Assembly (NCBI GenBank): GCA_913778495.1
Contig: CAJYVD010000025.1
Location: forward strand, 1-37,043
From: an uncultured Pantoea sp.
Lineage (GTDB): Bacteria; Pseudomonadota; Gammaproteobacteria; Enterobacterales; Enterobacteriaceae
Direction: 5' to 3'
Length of the DNA stretch: 37,043 bases
Below, piece after piece: positions 6,646-14,294 of the stretch; position 1 is the stretch's first letter, and each line of letters starts with the position of its first letter. The position numbers were made by a program, and so were the translations under genes. Under the pieces are notes generated by a model that saw only the letters and a program-made list of their open reading frames with translations, was not told the origin of the DNA and searched no databases.

Positions 6646-8556
6646 CTATAAGCGCTGTAAACACTCGCTCGCCACGGCGCGGAAACTGGCAAAGTCTCGG
6701 CAGTCGCGCAGGCGTGCCGTGGCGCGCTCGCGCAGAAACGTCACAAACAGATCGTAAATGGCCATCGCTTCTTCATACTCATTTTTACTGATGGCCAGCA
6801 AAAAAATCACCGACGCCGTTTCGTCTCCCCAGCTCACGCCGTGCGGTGCCAGCACGGTGTATACCACGCTTTTTTTCGCCAGCAGTCCCAGCGAATGGGG
6901 CAGCGCAATACCTTCACCCAGCAGGGTACTAACGATGGCTTCCCGTTCCTCAACCGAGGCATAAAAGTCGCGTTCTACGTAGCCCTCGGCCTCCAGCCGA
7001 TCGCACAGCAACCGGAACAGCGCAGACTGCGTCATCGGCCGATCCAGCACCATAAAGTGCCCGGCATCAAAATATTTCGCCAGCATGTAGGGACGCGTGC
7101 GATCCACCAGCACCAGCTTGCCCAACTGCTCCAGCTGATACTCGGTGGGAAACGGCGCCATCACTACCACCGGTTTATTCTTTTCATTCAGGCGCGCCGT
7201 GGAGATCACAAAGTCCTCGTCGATCTGCGTGCGCATCTCATAATCGCGCTGCGACAGCCGCGCGGTGACCACCAGCTGCGGGTACTTACGCAGCAGGAGC
7301 GCTTCGAGCATGCGCAGCGTTGAGTTACCGCTGTCGCAAACCAGCAGAACCTGCGGATGACGCTGGTAGCCGACGTTATAGTGCCGCTCCAGCCCCACGC
7401 CAATATGCAGCACCAGAAAGCCAATCTCGTTTTCGCTGATGGAATACGGCGTGTGCCTGCCCCAACTGGTGACGGCCGCCAACGTGACGTCGTAGGCCAT
7501 CGGATAGTGCTGTTTGATATTGCTCAACAGCGGATTAGGAATATGGATCTGATAACGCACCCGCGTGATCATGGTTTTAATGTGGGTGAGCAGATCGGCG
7601 CGCAGCTGCTCGTCCTGCTGCAAACGGTAGTTATAGTGCGTGTTGATGTAGTTCAGCAGGTAATCCACCAGGGCATCGGCGTCATCGGCGTTGATGTTAT
7701 CCGGCGTCAGCGCCTGAATTTGCCGCGCCGCGATGTGCAGACCCAGCCAGTTCTGCTCGGCCTGCGAGATGGGTTTCCCCGTTAGCGGATGCAGTTGCGT
7801 CACCAGCTGGCGCGCCGCGTCGCGCACGGGCGTACTCACCTCCTCAACGCCCGGATCGCTCAGCGGGAAACCTTCGCTGATGCGGCGCACAGCCACGGCG
7901 CAATACAGTTGCAGGTAGCGCTCCCCCTCATCGCTCAGGCGAATAGCGTGCTGGCTCACGCACTGATGCAACAGCGGTTCGAGCTGCGTCAGAATGCCGG
8001 GGTGCAGCACTTCAACCGTCAGCAGCGGGCTGTCCGGCGTCTCCTGATCGATCTGCCACAGCAAGTCCGTCAGACAGGTGCGAATCGCCGACTCGCGACC
8101 AAACAGCTTCATGCCGTAGCGCGGTTTGGTTTCAATGTGCAGATCGTAACGACTCAACCATTCGCGCACCTCAGCCATATCGCTTTGCAGCGTGGCGCGA
8201 CTGACAAACCACTCTTCTGACAGATCCTCCAGTTTCAGCGACCAGGCCGCGGTGAGAAAACGCGTCAGCAGATAGCGTACGCGCTCCGGCGAACTGCGCG
8301 GCACCCGCAGCGGCGCCGCGCGCTCCTGCTGCAGGCGGCTAAAACGCGCGGCGTCATCAATGCGCATGCGGTAGCCCGCACCGCGCGCCAGCACAAACTG
8401 TGCGCCATGCTCAACCAGCAGCGCATTCAGCGCGGTGATATCCGCGCGCACCGTGCGCGTAGAGACGGAAAAGCGGCGCGCCAGCTCATCCTGCGGCAGC
8501 GTTTCGTTTTGCAGCGCGTTAAACAGCTGCGCCAGACGCTGATGGGGAAATCTCAC
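6646..8556 (-). CDS. PRD/EIIB/EIIA-domain transcriptional regulator (MtlR/LicR-like)
   Basis: Predicted PTS-responsive activator of the accessory operon it ends. Domains in the 636-aa product: winged HTH (about 5-50, ELARRFSVSTRTVRADI), second HTH (about 93-140), PRD1 (about 185-285), PRD2 (about 295-395; H325 and H384), an EIIB-like P-loop with Cys407 (VCDSGNST), and an EIIA-mtl/fru-like domain (about 508-636) with His554 (IALPHS). The N-terminus is DNA-binding rather than the RNA-binding CAT domain of BglG/LicT, so this should act on DNA. PRD1 appears to have Tyr218 where the first conserved His is expected. Start is GTG 8556 with AGGTG upstream. It lies 24 nt after the aldolase gene, so is probably co-transcribed and autoregulatory. 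Confidence 0.9.
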   Translation of the reverse strand: MRFPHQRLAQLFNALQNETLPQDELARRFSVSTRTVRADITALNALLVEHGAQFVLARGAGYRMRIDDAARFSRLQQERAAPLRVPRSSPERVRYLLTRFLTAAWSLKLEDLSEEWFVSRATLQSDMAEVREWLSRYDLHIETKPRYGMKLFGRESAIRTCLTDLLWQIDQETPDSPLLTVEVLHPGILTQLEPLLHQCVSQHAIRLSDEGERYLQLYCAVAVRRISEGFPLSDPGVEEVSTPVRDAARQLVTQLHPLTGKPISQAEQNWLGLHIAARQIQALTPDNINADDADALVDYLLNYINTHYNYRLQQDEQLRADLLTHIKTMITRVRYQIHIPNPLLSNIKQHYPMAYDVTLAAVTSWGRHTPYSISENEIGFLVLHIGVGLERHYNVGYQRHPQVLLVCDSGNSTLRMLEALLLRKYPQLVVTARLSQRDYEMRTQIDEDFVISTARLNEKNKPVVVMAPFPTEYQLEQLGKLVLVDRTRPYMLAKYFDAGHFMVLDRPMTQSALFRLLCDRLEAEGYVERDFYASVEEREAIVSTLLGEGIALPHSLGLLAKKSVVYTVLAPHGVSWGDETASVIFLLAISKNEYEEAMAIYDLFVTFLRERATARLRDCRDFASFRAVASECLQRL

Positions 8557-8580
8557 GGAGCTTCACCTGTGGTGGGTGGA

Positions 8581-9318
8581 TTACAACAGACTTTTGCACG
8601 TTGCCAGAAGCTGGCGCACGTCGTCAACGCGCGTTTCGCCGCTGGCGCTGTCGATAATGGCGCTGTAAACGTGGGGGATGACTTTGCTCACGCCGGCCTC
8701 CAGCGCAATGCGCACAATGTCAGCGAAATTCCCGAGATCGATACCGCCGGTCGGCTCCAGCCAAAAATCGTATCGCGCACACGCTTCCGCCACTGCCCGG
8801 TACTCCGCCACCGCGCTCAGACCGCCCATGGGAAAATACTTCAGCGAGCTGCCGCCCATGTCTTGCAGCAGCGCAATCGCACTTGCGATCGGCACGATAG
8901 CGTCAACGCCTTTTGAACTGCGCGGGCCGGTAGAGATTTTCACCCGACCGGGCGTGCCGGTGGGGGACACCAAGCCATTCACCACGGTGAGTGGCTGCCC
9001 AAGCCGCGCCCGCGTGGTGGCCACGCCGGTAAACACCTGGTTCACGTGCTGCGGCTGAAGCGCGGCCGCAATCTCGCTGACCATGGCCGACTGATTAGGA
9101 TCGCCGGCACCCAGCCCCACTGAGAGCGCATTATCAATACGTGCCGCATAGTCGCGCATGTCGGCAATGGCCGCCTCGCTGGAGGCATAGTTTTTTGATA
9201 GCACGCCCACCAGCACGTGCCCTTCGGCCGCCTGCCAGATGTCGGCGGCATTTTGCTTTGATCCTGCCAGCACGTTAAGGCAGAGACGGTCCTGATAGAA
9301 ATTTGGCGTCAGCGTCAT
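8581..9318 (-). CDS. KDGP aldolase family protein (DgaF/EF_0839-like)
   Basis: Predicted class I aldolase of the DgaF family, which in Salmonella cleaves 2-keto-3-deoxy-gluconate 6-phosphate to pyruvate and glyceraldehyde 3-phosphate. The 245-aa product has a TIM-barrel-like pattern of strands: HVLVGVLS, VSVGLGAGDP-like LSVGLGAGDPNQ, VNQVFTG, VKISTGP, SSLKYFPMGG (Lys160 is the likely Schiff-base lysine) and FWLEPTGGIDL. Its ATG overlaps the stop of the DgaE-like gene by 4 nt (ATGA), indicating translational coupling and a shared pathway. Whether the real substrate is phosphorylated is unknown, because no kinase is encoded nearby. Confidence 0.88.
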   Translation of the reverse strand: MTLTPNFYQDRLCLNVLAGSKQNAADIWQAAEGHVLVGVLSKNYASSEAAIADMRDYAARIDNALSVGLGAGDPNQSAMVSEIAAALQPQHVNQVFTGVATTRARLGQPLTVVNGLVSPTGTPGRVKISTGPRSSKGVDAIVPIASAIALLQDMGGSSLKYFPMGGLSAVAEYRAVAEACARYDFWLEPTGGIDLGNFADIVRIALEAGVSKVIPHVYSAIIDSASGETRVDDVRQLLATCKSLL

Positions 9319-10436
9319 GCGCGGGTCTCCTCTCCCAGCAGGTGCTGGATAGCGGTAAAAATGGTGTGCAGCTGCGCGGCACTGACGCTGCGGACATCGG
9401 CTTCAATCATGCCTTCATTGGCCTTGTAACCGCGAAAATAGATGGCGGTGTCGCCGTGCTGTAGCGCCTGCACCAGCTCTGCGGTGGATGTGCCGATAGC
9501 GTCCTGGTCGAACGTGATTTCCGCGCGGGCGATATCGCGTCCGGCGGCGTCCCAGACCACGCGCGCGCTCACGCCGCGCAGCGTATTCAGGTTCTCGATA
9601 AACGGCGTCATTTTCGCCACCATCTCCGCACCGGTGGTTTTCGGCTGGCGCAGGTAATCTTCAATCGCCTGCGTCAGCCCCAGAATGCCCTCTTTACCCA
9701 CTTTCATGGCGCGGCCAATGCCGCGATTTTGCCGTTTGACCCATTCAACATACTGCCTGCGGCCGATCACCAGCCCGCTGGTGGGGCCTTCAAGGGCCTT
9801 TGCGCCACTGTAGATCACCAGATCGGCCCCCGCGCGGTAATAGCTGTGGAGATCCTCTTCTGCGGCGGCATCGACAATCAACGGCACGCCGTGCGCACGC
9901 GCCACTTCCGCCGCCTGCGCGACGCTCAGGTGGCTTTTTTGCACACAGTGATGGGATTTCACGTAAAGCAGCGCCGCGGTGGTGGGCGTGATGGCCGCAG
10001 CCAGCTGTGCTGGGGAGCACTCGTTACTGTACCCCGCCTCGATAAGGCGTCCGCCGCCCAGCGCCACCATGGTGCCCACCGGCACCCCATAGTTGACGTT
10101 GTGACCCTTGGGCACCACGATATCGTGCGCGACGCTCAGCGGGGCGGCGTGCAGGTTTTCCAACAGCCAGTCATCGTCTTTCACAATCACCGCCGCCACC
10201 GACTGTGCCAGGCCCGATGAGGCGCAGGACACCACCACCGCGTTGTCCACCTCCAGCAGTGAGGCGATATACGCGCCGGTTTTATTCACCAAGTCGGACA
10301 TTTCAAAATAGTGATTCAGACCGTAGCACACGGTATCCACCACGCTGGCGGCAGGCGTGGACACGCCCAGCACGGTCATACGACCCGACGCGTTAATGAC
10401 CCGCTTGAGGCCATACTTTTCATAAATCGAAGACAT
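9315..10436 (-). CDS. DgaE-like PLP-dependent ammonia-lyase (SelA-related fold)
   Basis: Fold-type I pyridoxal-phosphate enzyme related to selenocysteine synthase SelA and to DgaE, the D-glucosaminate-6-phosphate ammonia-lyase (dehydratase). The 373-aa product has the PLP-lysine motif YSGAKALEGPTSG with Lys213, the pyridine-binding Asp189 in LIVDAAAEED, and an N-terminal KRVINASGRMTVLG typical of SelA-like lyases. A role in selenium metabolism is unlikely: the family member sits between an amidohydrolase and an aldolase. Expected chemistry is alpha,beta-elimination from a 2-amino-3-hydroxy acid giving a 2-keto-3-deoxy acid, which the adjacent aldolase could cleave. The start overlaps the amidohydrolase end by 17 nt. 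Confidence 0.88.
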   Translation of the reverse strand: MSSIYEKYGLKRVINASGRMTVLGVSTPAASVVDTVCYGLNHYFEMSDLVNKTGAYIASLLEVDNAVVVSCASSGLAQSVAAVIVKDDDWLLENLHAAPLSVAHDIVVPKGHNVNYGVPVGTMVALGGGRLIEAGYSNECSPAQLAAAITPTTAALLYVKSHHCVQKSHLSVAQAAEVARAHGVPLIVDAAAEEDLHSYYRAGADLVIYSGAKALEGPTSGLVIGRRQYVEWVKRQNRGIGRAMKVGKEGILGLTQAIEDYLRQPKTTGAEMVAKMTPFIENLNTLRGVSARVVWDAAGRDIARAEITFDQDAIGTSTAELVQALQHGDTAIYFRGYKANEGMIEADVRSVSAAQLHTIFTAIQHLLGEETRA

Positions 10437-11553
10437 GATTGGCTTTTCCTTCCTCAGTCAAATGCCACTGGCCCGCGACGATCGCGGCCAGCGGCTGCAG
10501 ATGTTGCTGGCCCAAGACCTGTTCGCCCTCGGCATCCACAAACGGATGCGTCGCCTCGTTAACGCGAAACAGCGTCAAATCGGCGTCAAAGCCGGGCTCT
10601 AGCTGGCCCTTAGTGGATAAACGCAGCGCTGCCGCCGCATGCGCGGTCACGCAGGCGATCACCTGCGGCAGCGTCATGCCGAGGTGAAGGAATTTCGACA
10701 TCACGTGCGCGAGGCTGCGTACCGGGCCGTTCAGCCGGTTACGGCAGTAGATATCCGAGCTAATGGTGTCCGGCAGGATGCCGAGGGCAATGGCTTGGCG
10801 CGCGACAGCGAAACTGAAACTGGCGCTGCCGTGCCCCACGTCCAGCCGGACGCCGCGCGCAAGCGCCTGTTGTACCGAGGCCTTCAGTTCACCCTGCGGC
10901 GATAACAGGCGATTGGGTTTGCCGTTAAAGCAGTGGGTGATGATGTCGCCTGCGGTTAAGTGCTCGGCGATGGCGTCCAGCGTTGGCGGTGCGTTACCGA
11001 TGTGCACCATCAGCGGCAAGCCGCCCACCGCCTGCTGCATCGCCTTGGCGTGTATCAGCGGTGCGATACCATTGTCACCGACCACGCTGCTGCTCATGCG
11101 TGCTTTCAGGCCAATAATAAACGCCGGATGGCGCTGCACCGCCTGCACCACCGCGTCGCCGTCAATCTGCGCCATATCAGCAAGCTCTTGCTGCGTGACG
11201 ATGCCGGTGCGCGCGATGTTGAGCAGCGCACGCACGTCGGTGGCGGCGCTGCGCGTGAGCTGATAGAAGTCGTCGATCTGGTCGGCACCGGTGCTGCCCG
11301 CATCCACCACCGTGGTTACGCCCTGCGCGATCCCCACGGCATCGGGCGCATCGTGGTAAATCGGCGAGCGGGGATAGCAGTGCACATGGCTGTCGATCCA
11401 GCCAGCGCTAACGTAACAGCGTCCGGCCAGATCGCGCTCCAGCCGCGCCGTGCCCTGCACCTCGCCCACGGCGGCGATTTTGCCGTTCAGCAGGGCGATA
11501 TCCAGCTGTCGTTCATCGCACAGCCGGGCGCGGCGTAATATCACATCGAACAT
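10420..11553 (-). CDS. Amidohydrolase/deacetylase family metallohydrolase (cog3964, EF_0837-like)
   Basis: Metal-dependent hydrolase of the amidohydrolase superfamily, often misannotated as dihydroorotase or adenine deaminase. The 377-aa product from ATG 11553 (AAGGAG 5 nt upstream) shows a complete binuclear-site pattern: His56-x-His58 (DSHVH), probable carboxylated Lys150 (GLKARMSS), His184 (VHIGN), His207 (THCFNG) and catalytic Asp267 (SSDIYCRN), plus a DVGHG motif. From memory, purified cog3964 members (EF0837, Atu3266) hydrolyse acetyl-(R)-mandelate and some N-acetyl amino acids, but the true substrate is unknown. Here it probably removes an acyl group before the DgaE-like lyase acts. 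A longer in-frame start at 11619 overlaps DUF4310 and is less likely. Confidence 0.88.
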   Translation of the reverse strand: MFDVILRRARLCDERQLDIALLNGKIAAVGEVQGTARLERDLAGRCYVSAGWIDSHVHCYPRSPIYHDAPDAVGIAQGVTTVVDAGSTGADQIDDFYQLTRSAATDVRALLNIARTGIVTQQELADMAQIDGDAVVQAVQRHPAFIIGLKARMSSSVVGDNGIAPLIHAKAMQQAVGGLPLMVHIGNAPPTLDAIAEHLTAGDIITHCFNGKPNRLLSPQGELKASVQQALARGVRLDVGHGSASFSFAVARQAIALGILPDTISSDIYCRNRLNGPVRSLAHVMSKFLHLGMTLPQVIACVTAHAAAALRLSTKGQLEPGFDADLTLFRVNEATHPFVDAEGEQVLGQQHLQPLAAIVAGQWHLTEEGKANHVFDL

Positions 11554-11578
11554 GCTTTCTCCTTGCGAGCCCATGACC

Positions 11579-12229
11579 TTAAAGCGATACCGGGAAAAAG
11601 GCGCCCAGCACCATGGCACCGAGGATCGCGCCGCCGGTAATTGGCTTGTTCCAGAGATAGAACAGCAGCGCGCCCGCCAGCGAACCCAGCCCGATGGGGA
11701 TCGACGCCGCCATCGCCGACAAAATAATCAACGGCCCCAGAAAGCGGCCGGAGGCATTACCGGCCCCCATCATGACGTCGGCACCGTAGGTCGAGTCGCT
11801 CTGATTGATGGTGAACTTACGCGCGAGGATAATCACATAGCCAATCGCTACGCCAATCACCAGACCGGTTGCCAGCGAGGCGGCAAAATTCGCCACCGGA
11901 AATACCATGCCCGCGCCCAGCAGGAGCGCGGGCACGCCCAGCCCGACGCCGGTTTGAATCGCCCCGCCAATATCCAGAATGCCCACCAGCGATCCTTCAA
12001 TAATGCGTGCAAACAGAAAGCTGGCGCCAAACGCGGCCACCGCGCCGTAGGTACCGGTTTCGATACCGGCACGCAGCATGGAAACAAACGCCACCTCATT
12101 GAAGGCGCCAATGCCATAGAGGTAATACATGTGCGTGCCGGCGAACACGCCGGAAGAGAGCAGCCCGACAAACAGCGGGAAAGACCAGTCGGCGTACCAA
12201 AAGCCAGCGTGGGGTTTATCGTTGTGCAT
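11579..12229 (-). CDS. DUF4310 family integral membrane protein (EF_0832/EF_0833-type locus)
   Basis: Polytopic inner-membrane protein of unknown function, 216 aa. After a short charged N-terminus (MHNDKPHAGFWYADW) there are about six to seven hydrophobic segments rich in Gly and Ala, roughly residues 15-40, 58-75, 80-106, 108-135, 163-190 and 197-216. This looks like a channel or carrier subunit rather than an enzyme. AAGGAG lies 7 nt before ATG 12229 and the gene is 10 nt after DUF4311, so the two are probably made together and form one complex. Strictly associated in known genomes with DUF4311, DUF4312 and the SFCGS protein. Confidence 0.87.
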   Translation of the reverse strand: MHNDKPHAGFWYADWSFPLFVGLLSSGVFAGTHMYYLYGIGAFNEVAFVSMLRAGIETGTYGAVAAFGASFLFARIIEGSLVGILDIGGAIQTGVGLGVPALLLGAGMVFPVANFAASLATGLVIGVAIGYVIILARKFTINQSDSTYGADVMMGAGNASGRFLGPLIILSAMAASIPIGLGSLAGALLFYLWNKPITGGAILGAMVLGAFFPVSL

Positions 12230-12239
12230 AACAGGCTCC

Positions 12240-13016
12240 TTATTTGCCGCTCAGGCTGTTGTGTATGGCATCGAGCCAGCCCGGGATCCCCAGCTGGAAG
12301 GACTGCAGCAGCTTCATGTCAAAGCCGCGGAAGAAGCCGCTCAAAACAAATAGCAGCACAATTGCCGTCATCATCACGGCGGTGACGCGGTTCCAGCCGC
12401 TCTCTTCAACCCCTTTGCCAATCAGAATGCCCAGCACCAGGCCCGGTACCGCATTGCCCATGATCAGCTGGGCGAGGCCGCCAAAAATCGTCGCCCAAAA
12501 GCCCGATTTTTTGCCGGCATCAATGGCTGCCAGCCAGAAAATCACCGGCATCACGGTGTTCACCAGCAGGTTCGCAGCGGGTACCAGCACTTTCACTGCC
12601 GTGACCTGCAGCGCCGCCGGCACCGCAGAGGCGGTACTGTTCAGAAAGGCCACCACGATGGCACCGATGATGCCGCACGCCAGCGCCATGCGTTTTGGGT
12701 TATGCAACGTGTCCGCCAGATTGCGGTTTTTCACCATCAGCGCCGCAGCGCCCCAGTTCGGCAGAATGCGGTGATCGACATCCTGGGTAAACGATCCCGC
12801 CGCCACAGACGACGCCCAGGCGTTAAAGAAAAAGCCGAGACCGAAGGAGAAGTGAGAAGCCGGATCGCCTTCGCAGGCATTGAGTTCGCCCAAGGTGCGG
12901 AATGCGCCCATGCCCTGCGTGACCGGCGCGTGGAACATACGCGCAGCCCCCGCGCCTACGCCCACGCCGACCAGCCCACCGATGATTAACGACTTAAACA
13001 AAATGATGAAAAACAT
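12240..13016 (-). CDS. DUF4311 family integral membrane protein
   Basis: Polytopic inner-membrane protein, 258 aa, function unknown. Hydrophobic segments are visible at about residues 2-27, 55-76, 108-130, 137-168, 172-202 and 212-230, with a conserved-looking soluble insert (FRTLGELNACEGDPASHFSFG) near residue 40-60. Length and topology are in the range of PTS EIIC-type subunits of the mannose class, but I see no diagnostic EIIC motif. It lies 117 nt after DUF4312, the largest gap in this operon, and 10 nt before DUF4310. Likely the partner membrane subunit of a transporter. Confidence 0.87.
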   Translation of the reverse strand: MFFIILFKSLIIGGLVGVGVGAGAARMFHAPVTQGMGAFRTLGELNACEGDPASHFSFGLGFFFNAWASSVAAGSFTQDVDHRILPNWGAAALMVKNRNLADTLHNPKRMALACGIIGAIVVAFLNSTASAVPAALQVTAVKVLVPAANLLVNTVMPVIFWLAAIDAGKKSGFWATIFGGLAQLIMGNAVPGLVLGILIGKGVEESGWNRVTAVMMTAIVLLFVLSGFFRGFDMKLLQSFQLGIPGWLDAIHNSLSGK

Positions 13017-13133
13017 GATGTTGGCCCTTGATTGTTGTTGTCATTTTTCGTGCCCGGCAGGCCCGGTCTGCGGCAGGAACTGAACGCCGTGAACAACATG
13101 ACCGCGTGCTGCCGATCGGCGCCGCAGCGGCCA

Positions 13134-13433
13134 TCAGGCGCTGGCGGTAAAGGTCACCTGCTCGGTATCGATAGCCGTCACGCTGACGGTGATCGCCAGC
13201 TCCACGCGATAGAGCCGCTTGACGCGCGGCAGGAAGAAAAACAGAAATCGCTCTGTGCGTACCGCTTCGTGCGCACGCACGATGCGCACATCCTGCGGTT
13301 CAATGCGCAGCAGAATTTGCTGGCTGCTGCGCAGCACCTGCTGCTGAACCTGGCTTAGCGCATCGGCAAAGGCTTTGGCCTTGGTATCACCGCTGCCCGC
13401 CACGCTGACCTGGGTTTCATAATGCTGTTTCAT
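13134..13433 (-). CDS. DUF4312 family small protein
   Basis: Small soluble protein of 99 aa, function unknown. It reads as an alpha/beta domain: strand YETQVSVAGSG, helix KAFADALSQVQQQVLR, then strands with the unusual run ERFLFFFLPR and a C-terminal VELAITVSVTAIDTEQVTF. It lacks a signal peptide and membrane segments. ATG 13433 is only 2 nt after the stop codon of the SFCGS protein, so translation is probably coupled. A TTG at 13460 in the same frame is less plausible. Found in the same conserved locus as DUF4310/DUF4311, it is probably the cytosolic part of that complex. Confidence 0.85.
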   Translation of the reverse strand: MKQHYETQVSVAGSGDTKAKAFADALSQVQQQVLRSSQQILLRIEPQDVRIVRAHEAVRTERFLFFFLPRVKRLYRVELAITVSVTAIDTEQVTFTASA

Positions 13434-13435
13434 AC

Positions 13436-13792
13436 TTAGCTGCCGTGTTTTTTTGCCCAAGCCTGCACCAGGCGCTCACCCAGCTCCTCTTTATCCATAA
13501 AGCCGAAGCCGAGCACCGTCGCGCCTTCATTGATGGCAGTGACGCCTTCCTCAATAGAGCGCATACCGTGTTTGGCTTTGTAGCCATATTTGTTCTGCGC
13601 GGTAATCGCGCCCGCACCGCCGCTGCCGCAAAACGAGATGCCAAAATCCGCGTTCTCGGCTTTCATCACGTCACCTAACTTCATGTCTGCCGCAACGCCG
13701 GGCACCACGACCGCCCGTCCACCCGCTTTTTCAATGCCAGCCGCGACTTTCTGCCCTTTACCCAAACGATCGCCAATGACCACCGTGACCAT
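13436..13792 (-). CDS. Glycine-rich SFCGS family protein
   Basis: Small cytosolic protein of 118 aa named for its SFCGSGGAGA motif (Cys55 in FCGSGGAGAI). The N-terminus MVTVVIGDRLGKGQKVAAGIEKAGG looks like a Rossmann-type beta-alpha start. The protein resembles E. coli YhfU (DUF2620), which sits in another uncharacterised amino-sugar-like operon beside the membrane protein YhfT. The cysteine within a Gly-rich loop recalls the phospho-cysteine loops (C-G-x-G-x-G-S) of ascorbate/galactitol EIIB proteins, though there the Cys is near the N-terminus. That analogy is inference. ATG 13792 has AGGAG 6 nt upstream; the PRD gene ends 13 nt before. Confidence 0.87.
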   Translation of the reverse strand: MVTVVIGDRLGKGQKVAAGIEKAGGRAVVVPGVAADMKLGDVMKAENADFGISFCGSGGAGAITAQNKYGYKAKHGMRSIEEGVTAINEGATVLGFGFMDKEELGERLVQAWAKKHGS

Positions 13793-13805
13793 ATTGTTCT
13801 CCTCG

Positions 13806-14144
13806 CTATGCTTGGTTGGTTTTTGCCACTTCGATATGCACCGACAGCAGCCAGGCTTCTTCCACCGGCAAATTGCCGAACAGATCCACAATCTGCTGCG
13901 CCAGCGCCAGCGAGTTAGGGGCGATCTCGTCAAACAGATCGGCCTCTACCTCCGGGAGCGCCTCTCCGGTTAGGGATCGCACCGCCATGGCCCGAACGTG
14001 CGACGCCAGCATCTGCTGCTGAACGGCGTCGGGATAGATCTGATGCGCAGCATAGATCGCCGCGATCTGATGCAGTGCTTTCTCCGTCAGCGTCTCAAGC
14101 GCTTCCGGCGTATTCTGGGGCAGCGGGACAGCTTCACTCCTCAC
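13806..14144 (-). CDS. Stand-alone PRD-domain protein (EF_0829 family)
   Basis: First gene of the accessory operon; 112 aa consisting of a single PTS regulation domain. Both hallmark histidines of a PRD are visible: His49 in LASHVRAMAVRS and His103 in EEAWLLSVHIEVAK. There is no DNA- or RNA-binding domain, so it cannot itself be a regulator of transcription in the usual way. It could be a phosphorylation partner or decoy for the large PRD regulator at the operon's other end, or a regulatory subunit of the transporter. Start is GTG 14144 with AGGAG 6 nt upstream. Confidence 0.85.
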   Translation of the reverse strand: MRSEAVPLPQNTPEALETLTEKALHQIAAIYAAHQIYPDAVQQQMLASHVRAMAVRSLTGEALPEVEADLFDEIAPNSLALAQQIVDLFGNLPVEEAWLLSVHIEVAKTNQA

Positions 14145-14190: not shown

Positions 14191-14208
14191 CGGAAAGTAC
14201 GCTTTCCG
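14191..14208. promoter_or_regulatory. Inverted repeat upstream of accessory operon
   Basis: CGGAAAG-TACG-CTTTCCG, 7-bp perfect arms, 47 nt upstream of the first gene of the operon. Candidate operator or leader hairpin. Confidence 0.45.
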
Positions 14209-14231: not shown

Positions 14232-14251
14232 TTTCCACCTTGAAGTGGAAA
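14232..14251. promoter_or_regulatory. Inverted repeat upstream of accessory operon
   Basis: TTTCCAC-CTTGAA-GTGGAAA, 7-bp perfect arms. It contains the heptamer CACCTTG, which recurs in the palindrome at 14279-14294. Confidence 0.45.
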
Positions 14252-14278: not shown

Positions 14279-14294
14279 CAAGGTGCGCACCTTG
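14279..14294. promoter_or_regulatory. 16-bp perfect palindrome, candidate operator
   Basis: CAAGGTGCGCACCTTG is a perfect palindrome about 135 nt upstream of the first gene. This is a plausible activator site for a dimeric HTH regulator such as the PRD protein encoded last in the operon. Confidence 0.5.

What the first reader, a model, noticed from the sequence alone, without database searches (positions are those of the whole stretch)
6646..14144. Nine-gene uncharacterised transport-plus-catabolism operon of the EF_0829-EF_0839 type
Seen: nine minus-strand genes with overlaps or small gaps (4-nt and 17-nt overlaps, gaps of 2-24 nt, one gap of 117 nt) encoding a single-PRD protein, SFCGS protein, DUF4312, DUF4311, DUF4310, amidohydrolase, DgaE-like PLP lyase, DgaF-like aldolase and a PRD/EIIB/EIIA regulator. 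Known: this set of families travels together in scattered Firmicutes and gamma-proteobacteria, and as far as I recall its substrate and transporter mechanism are undescribed. Inference: a complete importer-catabolic-regulator module for an acylated amino-acid-like or amino-sugar-acid compound.
Basis: partly seen in the sequence, partly recalled or inferred. Interest (0 to 1): 0.82.

Follow-up and report, generated by a model that had tools for sequence, protein, structure and literature searches.

The report
Uncharacterised amino-sugar-acid import and breakdown operon
A nine-gene set found together in many gut, plant and insect bacteria probably imports an acetylated sugar acid of the N-acetylglucosaminate type and breaks it down to pyruvate, perhaps with a permease of an undescribed kind.

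Summary
Nine minus-strand genes (14144 to 6646) match TIGR03582/03577/03578/03580/03579/03583, the DgaE and DgaF families, and a PRD/EIIA regulator. DUF4310 and SFCGS are over cut-off in the same 12 of 398 Pseudomonadota genomes. All nine genes are detectable in 77 of 80 loci; three are cut by contig ends. Salmonella STM4440 onward is the same operon.

New here: SFCGS is probably RpiB-like. A PRD, RpiB-like, membrane-protein cassette recurs in the yhf operon. Two Bartonella plasmids carry the operon plus an HPr-Enzyme I fusion. A conserved operator (14232-14251) precedes the first gene in 77 of 84 regions and 12 of 12 genomes. DgaE keeps three proposed phosphate-binding arginines. 26 of 78 loci add a lactonase.

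Best reading: uptake and phosphorylation of N-acetyl-D-glucosaminate, deacetylation, deamination to KDPG, aldol cleavage. Substrate and transport mechanism are inferred. The cell's own LPMO is not supported as source (3 of 12 operon genomes). Membrane-protein models failed.

The parts
13806..14144 (-). single-PRD protein (EF_0829 / AHA_3910 family; first gene)
   Evidence: TIGR03582 118.9 bits, cut-off 69.35; His49 and His103 kept in 11 of 11 aligned members
13436..13792 (-). SFCGS protein, probable RpiB-superfamily small protein with invariant Cys55
   Evidence: TIGR03577 221.4 bits, and TIGR02133 (RpiB type) at E 5e-4 under its cut-off; profile against E. coli RpiB alone scores 27.2, 0 of 60 shuffles reach it, maximum 22.3; Cys55 in 14 of 14
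13134..13433 (-). DUF4312 small soluble protein, fold unknown
   Evidence: TIGR03578/PF14189; no hydrophobic segment
12240..13016 (-). DUF4311 integral membrane protein, candidate permease subunit
   Evidence: TIGR03580 495.9 bits; several hydrophobic segments
11579..12229 (-). DUF4310 integral membrane protein, candidate permease subunit
   Evidence: TIGR03579 383.6 bits; several hydrophobic segments
10420..11553 (-). EF_0837-type amidohydrolase, predicted N-acetyl-aldonate(-phosphate) deacetylase
   Evidence: TIGR03583 533.6 bits; PDB relatives 8wzy and 2ics; metal-ligand positions H56, H58, K150, H207, D267 in 82 of 82 and H184 in 81 of 82 distinct sequences (ligand roles recalled)
9315..10436 (-). 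DgaE-family PLP ammonia lyase
   Evidence: TIGR01437 573.9 bits, but under the DGL equivalog cut-off (371.6 of 600); aligns to DGL 7lc0; Arg304/335/349 and His163 in 81 of 81 distinct sequences; SGAK lysine in 81 of 81
8581..9318 (-). DgaF-family KDPG aldolase
   Evidence: NF047796 369.4 bits, cut-off 300; PDB 3m0z E 1.4e-117
6646..8556 (-). HTH-Mga-PRD-EIIB-like-EIIA regulator (last gene)
   Evidence: Pfam PRD, PTS_EIIA_2, HTH_11, Mga; EIIB-like Cys and EIIA His read by eye (sequence)
14232..14251 (.). conserved operator TTTCCAC-N6-GTGGAAA before the first gene
   Evidence: at most 2 mismatches in 77 of 84 upstream regions against 3 sites in 968,155 bp downstream in the same loci; operon site in 12 of 12 genomes

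Best explanation
The operon imports an N-acetylated 2-amino-aldonate, most likely N-acetyl-D-glucosaminate (GlcNAc1A), and turns it into acetate, ammonia, pyruvate and glyceraldehyde-3-phosphate. Proposed steps: (a) in members with the lactonase, the lactone is opened outside the cytoplasm; (b) DUF4311/DUF4310 form the membrane path, with SFCGS and DUF4312 as cytoplasmic partners, and uptake depends on the PTS relay (PEP, Enzyme I, HPr), giving a phosphorylated substrate; (c) the amidohydrolase removes the acyl group; (d) the DgaE-like lyase makes KDPG; (e) the DgaF-like aldolase cleaves it; (f) the PRD/EIIB/EIIA regulator reads PTS phosphorylation and binds the 20-bp operator. Shown by sequence: gene set, co-occurrence, operator conservation, active-site conservation in (c) and (d); probable from sequence: the RpiB relation of SFCGS. 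Inferred: substrate identity, order of steps, (b) as a whole, export of the lactonase, and that the regulator binds the operator.
For: DgaF is over the KDPG-aldolase equivalog cut-off. [quoted passage not shown] In 81 of 81 distinct operon sequences it keeps the three Arg near which the DGL substrate's phosphate was docked, and His163, the proton donor (PMC9529869, part 1 of 3 read; counts; positions mapped by hand on the alignment). The amidohydrolase keeps its metal-site residues. No kinase lies inside the operon in the window or in the Salmonella and Klebsiella annotations. Two of two Bartonella plasmids carry an HPr-Enzyme I fusion right after the operon; in the loci searched it is found nowhere else. 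Its nearest relatives in the plasmid collection are in Caballeronia and Paraburkholderia, and the one annotated neighbourhood has the PTS permease gene ptsG next to it. A lactonase lies between aldolase and regulator in 26 of 78 loci, and the Klebsiella copy has a signal-like N-terminus (by eye). In E. faecalis, ef0834 of the operon is named among PTS genes of the NagY (N-acetylglucosamine antiterminator) regulon (PMC12502629, section 8). Operator.
Against: No substrate was measured. DgaE falls below the DGL equivalog cut-off. LPMO genes do not track the operon: 3 of 12 operon genomes against 1 of 6 same-family genomes without it. The known GlcNAc1A route (ong) uses other enzyme families and is reported in Klebsiella and Serratia too (PMC9537276, passages), so the operon would be redundant there. 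The window genome has 14 PfkB-family matches elsewhere, 13 over cut-off, so phosphorylation by an unlinked kinase is possible. The Bartonella HPr-Enzyme I could serve only the regulator. The E. faecalis regulator has no EIIA match, so EIIA is not a constant part. Neither membrane protein gave a significant match to a PTS EIIC or to any solved structure, and both structure models failed.
Confidence: 0.45

Rival explanations
1. Same catabolic route, but DUF4311/DUF4310 is an ordinary ion-coupled carrier. The PTS parts (PRD, regulator, Bartonella HPr-Enzyme I) only control expression or activity, and phosphate comes from an unlinked kinase.
For: The regulator carries PRD and EIIA modules. 14 PfkB-family matches (13 over cut-off) in the window genome. 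E. faecalis has a PfkB-family kinase in the operon whose best models include KDG kinases, all under their cut-offs. DUF4311 proteins weakly match DUF2232, all under its cut-off (E 0.001 to 0.034 in four of five members, 3.5 in Bartonella).
Against: A kinase like that of the E. faecalis operon is found in none of the other loci searched. DgaE keeps the proposed phosphate-binding Arg cluster in 81 of 81, which favours phosphorylation before DgaE.
Confidence: 0.33
2. The substrate is a different N-acyl D-amino acid or amino-sugar acid (for example the galacto or manno epimer, or an acyl group other than acetyl), processed by the same three enzymes.
For: The amidohydrolase family is named by homology only. 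DgaE is under the DGL equivalog cut-off. E. faecalis adds a MupG-family protein and a lactose/cellobiose-family EIIC, which suggests a disaccharide-derived substrate there.
Against: DgaF is over the KDPG-aldolase cut-off, so the lyase product is probably KDPG or a close epimer.
Confidence: 0.3
3. The SFCGS protein is a catabolic isomerase or epimerase of the RpiB kind rather than a transport partner.
For: Similarity to RpiB with the Cys position kept.
Against: The RpiB His99 position is not His in SFCGS, and the match ends before the C-terminal Arg/His residues of RpiB (their roles are recalled). In the yhf operon its likely relative YhfU again lies beside a membrane protein.
Confidence: 0.25

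Closest known systems
dga operon (D-glucosaminate catabolism, Salmonella)
   Same: DgaE-type lyase and DgaF-type KDPG aldolase; phosphorylated intermediate predicted
   Different: No mannose-family PTS permease; extra deacetylase; four unexplained proteins (SFCGS, DUF4312, DUF4311, DUF4310). The dga description is from PMC9529869 and, for the mannose family, from a title in a reference list; the primary paper PMC3754740 was not held
ong pathway for GlcNAc1A (chitin oxidation, Pseudoalteromonas; PMC9537276)
   Same: Logic: deacetylate, deaminate, reach KDG-6-phosphate
   Different: OngB is D-aminoacylase-like, OngC is fold-type III PLP, KdgK phosphorylates late, uptake is by an SSS carrier, the regulator is MurR/RpiR (passages). 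Here the families and probably the order of phosphorylation differ
EF_0829-EF_0839 / AHA_3910-3917 hypothetical equivalog set (NCBIfam)
   Same: The window is a full member of this set
   Different: The hypothetical-equivalog models of the set give no tested function
E. coli yhf operon (YhfZ to YhfS)
   Same: Single PRD (YhfY), DUF2620 (YhfU, weakly RpiB-like), membrane protein (YhfT), PLP enzymes and a hydrolase, in E. coli, Vibrio, Cetobacterium and a gut contig
   Different: Other enzymes and regulator; YhfT not shown to be related to DUF4311 or DUF4310

Membership tests
EF_0829-EF_0839 conserved gene set | each product over its NCBIfam cut-off | tested here: met
   TIGR03582, 03577, 03578, 03580, 03579, 03583, 01437, 03581 all over cut-off; no model of the set covers the regulator
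EF_0829-EF_0839 conserved gene set | genes travel together | tested here: met
   DUF4310 and SFCGS in the same 12 of 398 genomes; all nine genes detectable in 77 of 80 loci, three cut by contig ends. Exception: A. caviae L035 lacks two
D-glucosaminate (dga) operon | DgaE over the DGL equivalog cut-off NF047797 | tested here: not met
   371.6 bits against 600
D-glucosaminate (dga) operon | DgaF over the KDPG-aldolase equivalog NF047796 | tested here: met
   369.4 bits against 300
D-glucosaminate (dga) operon | mannose-family PTS permease DgaABCD in the operon | tested here: not met
   no EIIC, EIID or Man-type EIIA/EIIB match in the nine proteins at E up to 0.001
ong GlcNAc1A pathway | OngB-type deacetylase and OngC fold-type III lyase | tested here: not met
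   deacetylase is TIGR03583, only a weak PDB match to PpOngB (E 4.8e-4 and 5.9e-4); lyase is SelA-like
RpiB superfamily (SFCGS protein) | profile similarity to RpiB above chance | tested here: met
   against E. coli RpiB alone: E 5.6e-4, score 27.2, 0 of 60 shuffles, maximum 22.3. Against three RpiB: E 1.3e-6, score 42.0, maximum 19.9, but two of those three were picked because they hit the SFCGS profile, so this value is inflated. A profile search of PDB did not return RpiB
RpiB sugar-phosphate isomerase (enzyme) | catalytic Cys plus His99 and C-terminal Arg/His phosphate site | tested here: not met
   Cys kept; His99 position is not His and the C-terminal part is missing from the match (residue roles recalled)
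PTS permease (Enzyme II) | EIIC-like membrane fold with EIIA/EIIB partners | tested here: inconclusive
   no significant Pfam or PDB sequence match to EIIC; models failed at pLDDT 43.8 and 44.7; HPr-Enzyme I next to the operon in Bartonella
PTS permease (Enzyme II) | PEP-dependent phosphorylation of the substrate during uptake | not testable with these tools
   needs membrane or whole-cell assay

The most novel reading that the evidence does not exclude
DUF4311/DUF4310 with DUF4312, the RpiB-like SFCGS protein and a single-PRD protein form a hitherto unrecognised kind of PTS-driven permease, in which a free PRD takes the place of EIIA or EIIB. The yhf cassette (YhfY-YhfU-YhfT) is a second branch of the same design.
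Probability: 0.26. Interest if true: 0.87.

Novelty: new variant of a known kind. Interest (0 to 1): 0.6.

Why it matters
Four protein families without a function (DUF4310, DUF4311, DUF4312, SFCGS) get a testable role. If the substrate prediction is right, many enteric bacteria and Enterococcus have a second, phosphorylated route for N-acetylglucosaminate, a compound for which a complete pathway was described in 2022 (PMC9537276, passages) and for whose deacetylase and lyase an Aeromonas study found only distant or no matches (PMC11653859, passages). The PRD + RpiB-like + membrane-protein cassette, seen in two operon types, may mark an undescribed transporter class.

Tried and rejected
Structure route: AlphaFold models of DUF4311 (the window plus 39 of 58 distinct locus sequences) and DUF4310 (the window plus 45 of 68) came out at pLDDT 43.8 and 44.7. 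I ran no fold search on them, since matches would be meaningless.

DUF4311 or DUF4310 as parts of YhfT: looked plausible by eye at the N-terminus. Not supported for DUF4311 (23 of 60 shuffles reach the score); marginal for DUF4310 (1 of 60, hhalign probability 3.5%). DUF4311 related to DUF4310: 14 of 60. DUF4312 related to RpiB: 34 of 60. PDB matches of the DUF4312 profile (RecA fusions, E 2.4e-5 and weaker, over 26 positions, and haemoglobin) I take as spurious. The profile search of SFCGS against PDB returned only a nitrogenase at E 0.96, although the single-sequence search gave RpiB 2vvr at E 0.55 as its only hit.

With E. coli RpiB alone the SFCGS match drops from score 42.0 to 27.2 (shuffle maximum 22.3), and the YhfU match from 22.5 to 19.7 (maximum 17.7). 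I call SFCGS "probably" RpiB-like for this reason, and lowered the novel case from 0.28 to 0.26.

Chitin oxidised by the cell's own LPMO as the general source: not supported. An RNA element at the leader or inside the operon: no Rfam match at E up to 1 except two below their gathering scores. The dyad's inner pairs do not covary beyond independence, so it reads as a DNA site. Viral contigs: three scans, no relative. E. coli: no match in the collection of 5,426 genomes with the DUF4310-DUF4311 DNA at blastn sensitivity.

A first guess that the genus was Serratia was wrong: the DUF4311 stretch is 100% identical in Pantoea sp. Mb-10.


Full report
What is there. The window lies in a genome close to Pantoea sp. 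Mb-10 (DUF4311 stretch 100% identical). Between a gene that by position and resemblance is cybC (compare) and a convergent LysR-family gene run nine minus-strand genes: single-PRD protein, SFCGS, DUF4312, DUF4311, DUF4310, amidohydrolase, DgaE-family lyase, DgaF-family aldolase, and a regulator with HTH, Mga, PRD and EIIA modules. Each of the first eight is over its curated NCBIfam cut-off.

How tightly it travels. In a sample of 398 Pseudomonadota genomes DUF4310 is in 12, all from the window's family, and SFCGS over cut-off is in the same 12. In the 18 same-family genomes listed there the amidohydrolase and DgaE families are over cut-off in the same 12, at adjoining positions; two of the 12 have a second DgaE elsewhere. 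Of 36 genomes of the window's genus, 34 have DUF4310. Of these 80 loci, 77 have a detectable copy of all nine genes, and the other three end at a contig edge. Detectable is not intact: in 26 of the 77 some gene's best single frame covers less than 85% of the window protein. In 22 of these 26 it is the short, divergent PRD protein alone; in the other four (L038, L068, L094, L097) other genes are concerned. Outside Enterobacterales the set is in E. faecalis, in a Listeria-labelled wastewater contig, on two Bartonella plasmids, and in part in Aeromonas caviae. In Salmonella it is STM4440 onward (tags shown for STM4440-4443 and STM4447), again between cybC and nrdG. A DNA search of the 5,426-genome E. 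coli collection found nothing.

The enzymes. The aldolase passes the KDPG-aldolase equivalog cut-off. [quoted passage not shown] It aligns to that enzyme (7lc0) over nearly its length. The three Arg near which the DGL authors docked the phosphate, and His163, which they showed to be the proton donor (PMC9529869, part 1 of 3 read), are present in 81 of 81 sequences. These 81 are the window, four from plasmid records and 76 distinct, full-length ones from the 80 loci; identical and incomplete copies were left out. His162 is Ala in two of 81, the Bartonella HY761 copy among them. The amidohydrolase keeps its metal-site residues (82 of 82, one position 81 of 82). Its closest relatives of known structure are 8wzy and 2ics. 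An Arg in a motif shared with 2ics is absent from 2ogj (alignment); that it binds phosphate is only a lead.

Accessory genes. A lactonase lies between aldolase and regulator in 26 of 78 loci that hold both and in Klebsiella; it is absent from the window. The Klebsiella copy starts with a signal-like stretch (judged by eye). GlcNAc1A exists in equilibrium with its 1,5-lactone (PMC12017989, passages), which would give such an enzyme work. Two loci without it have other, unidentified reading frames in that gap (L086, L095). E. faecalis adds a lactose/cellobiose-family EIIC, a 99-residue protein without a family, a MupG-family protein, and a PfkB-family kinase whose best models include KDG kinases, all under their cut-offs. 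Its ef0834 is named among PTS genes of the NagY regulon (PMC12502629, section 8). An earlier paper suggested that EF0839 may be linked to amino sugar metabolism (PMC7701990, passages), and another gives the dgaE and dgaF names to an E. faecalis pair (PMC7396535, passages). So an amino-sugar link is not new; the specific substrate is my inference.

PTS dependence. On both Bartonella plasmids the operon is followed by a gene for HPr fused to Enzyme I (domains tested on one copy, the other 99.7% identical). No other locus searched has it. The nearest relatives in the plasmid collection are in Caballeronia and Paraburkholderia at about 54% identity (15 of 198 records listed). Of three of their neighbourhoods fetched, one is annotated and has the PTS permease gene ptsG next to it. 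I take this as evidence that the module needs the PTS relay. It does not separate a role in uptake from a role in regulation. That Bartonella lacks a sugar PTS is recalled and was not tested.

SFCGS is probably RpiB-like. The window protein hits the RpiB-type model TIGR02133 at E 5e-4, under its cut-off, and 2vvr, an RpiB, is its only PDB hit at E up to 1 (E 0.55). Nine genomes gave SFCGS hits below cut-off. I looked at three, and all are RpiB reading frames (the two distinct ones are 47% and 44% identical to E. coli RpiB). The profile match to E. coli RpiB plus these two has E 1.3e-6 and score 42.0, above 60 column shuffles (maximum 19.9), but those two had been selected by the SFCGS profile. 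Against E. coli RpiB alone it is E 5.6e-4, score 27.2, above 60 shuffles (maximum 22.3). Against YhfU the score is 25.8 (maximum 20.7). YhfU against E. coli RpiB alone is 19.7 (maximum 17.7). A profile search of PDB did not recover RpiB. The Cys is kept, but the His99 position and the C-terminal part of RpiB are not, so isomerase activity is doubtful.

A recurring cassette. In E. coli, Vibrio halioticoli, Cetobacterium and a gut contig the yhf operon has a single PRD (YhfY), the DUF2620 protein (YhfU) and a membrane protein (YhfT). YhfY matches the operon's PRD protein (score 42.0, shuffle maximum 17.2). The membrane proteins are not shown to match each other. Two operons sharing two small parts beside different membrane proteins is the ground for the novel case.

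Operator. TTTCCAC-N6-GTGGAAA with at most two mismatches lies upstream of the first gene in 77 of 84 regions (79 of the 80 loci, Klebsiella, Salmonella, two Bartonella, the window), against 3 sites in 968,155 bp downstream in the same loci. Exact sites are in 25 of 84; at most three mismatches, 81 of 84. The motif was found on this same set. The 12 genomes together have 8 other matches, and the reversed control pattern also has 8. The two Bartonella sites keep the arms with three mismatches. The site thus looks private to this operon. That the operon's own regulator binds it is inferred.

Against the chitin story. LPMO_10 is in 3 of 12 operon genomes, the window's own among them, and in 1 of 6 same-family genomes without the operon. 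If the substrate is N-acetyl-D-glucosaminate, it is mostly scavenged. The ong route to the same compound uses different families and is reported in Klebsiella and Serratia as well.

Literature. Searches for the DUF names, the SFCGS name, DgaE/DgaF, yhf genes, EF_0829-0839 tags, STM444x tags, GlcNAc1A terms, cog3964 terms and a set of domain terms found no paper that gives this operon a function. The hits on gene tags that I opened were passing mentions. PMC11135667, which names EF0838, was seen only in a listing. Only open-access PMC text was searched.

Verdict. A real, widely shared, uncharacterised operon. The catabolic half is well supported by homology (about 0.65 that the lyase product is KDPG, by my judgement). 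N-acetyl-D-glucosaminate as substrate is about even, and PTS-driven uptake by DUF4311/DUF4310 is a minority but serious possibility. The confidences of the rivals overlap and are not meant to sum to one.

Noticed in passing
L033:15405-17417 and L036:8047-10062: Two bat-faeces Bartonella plasmids carry the operon plus an HPr-Enzyme I fusion, close to a type VI secretion gene (tssA).
   Followed up: partly
L035:9714-10346: In Aeromonas caviae KAM479 one reading frame matches both DUF4310 and the DgaF aldolase, and amidohydrolase and DgaE give no hit: apparently an internal deletion.
   Followed up: no
L032:15570-16330: The DgaF-type aldolase of E. faecalis IDRL-9065 is split by a frameshift and is not in the record's gene table.
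   Followed up: no
L038, L068, L094, L097: Short or broken frames for operon genes: DUF4312 in L038, SFCGS in L068, DgaE and DgaF in Pantoea stewartii L094, six genes in Serratia rubidaea NCTC12971 L097 (possibly assembly errors).
   Followed up: partly
L086:15111-17323 and L095:14669-16024: Unidentified reading frames between aldolase and regulator in an Erwinia and a Yersinia aldovae genome.
   Followed up: partly
L141:9714-10358: The depositor's note on the Salmonella DUF4310 gene cites a weak hit (0.0003) to methyltransferase subunit MtrC; my Pfam and PDB searches did not show it.
   Followed up: partly
window 14191-14208 and 14279-14294: Two further perfect dyads in the leader of the operon; one search printed 39 relatives and shows neither in them.
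   Followed up: partly
L139 (MT836239.1), L140 (OR848318.1): Records filed as phage genomes hold bacterial metabolic operons (yhf-type and EF_0829-type), so they are probably host DNA.
   Followed up: no
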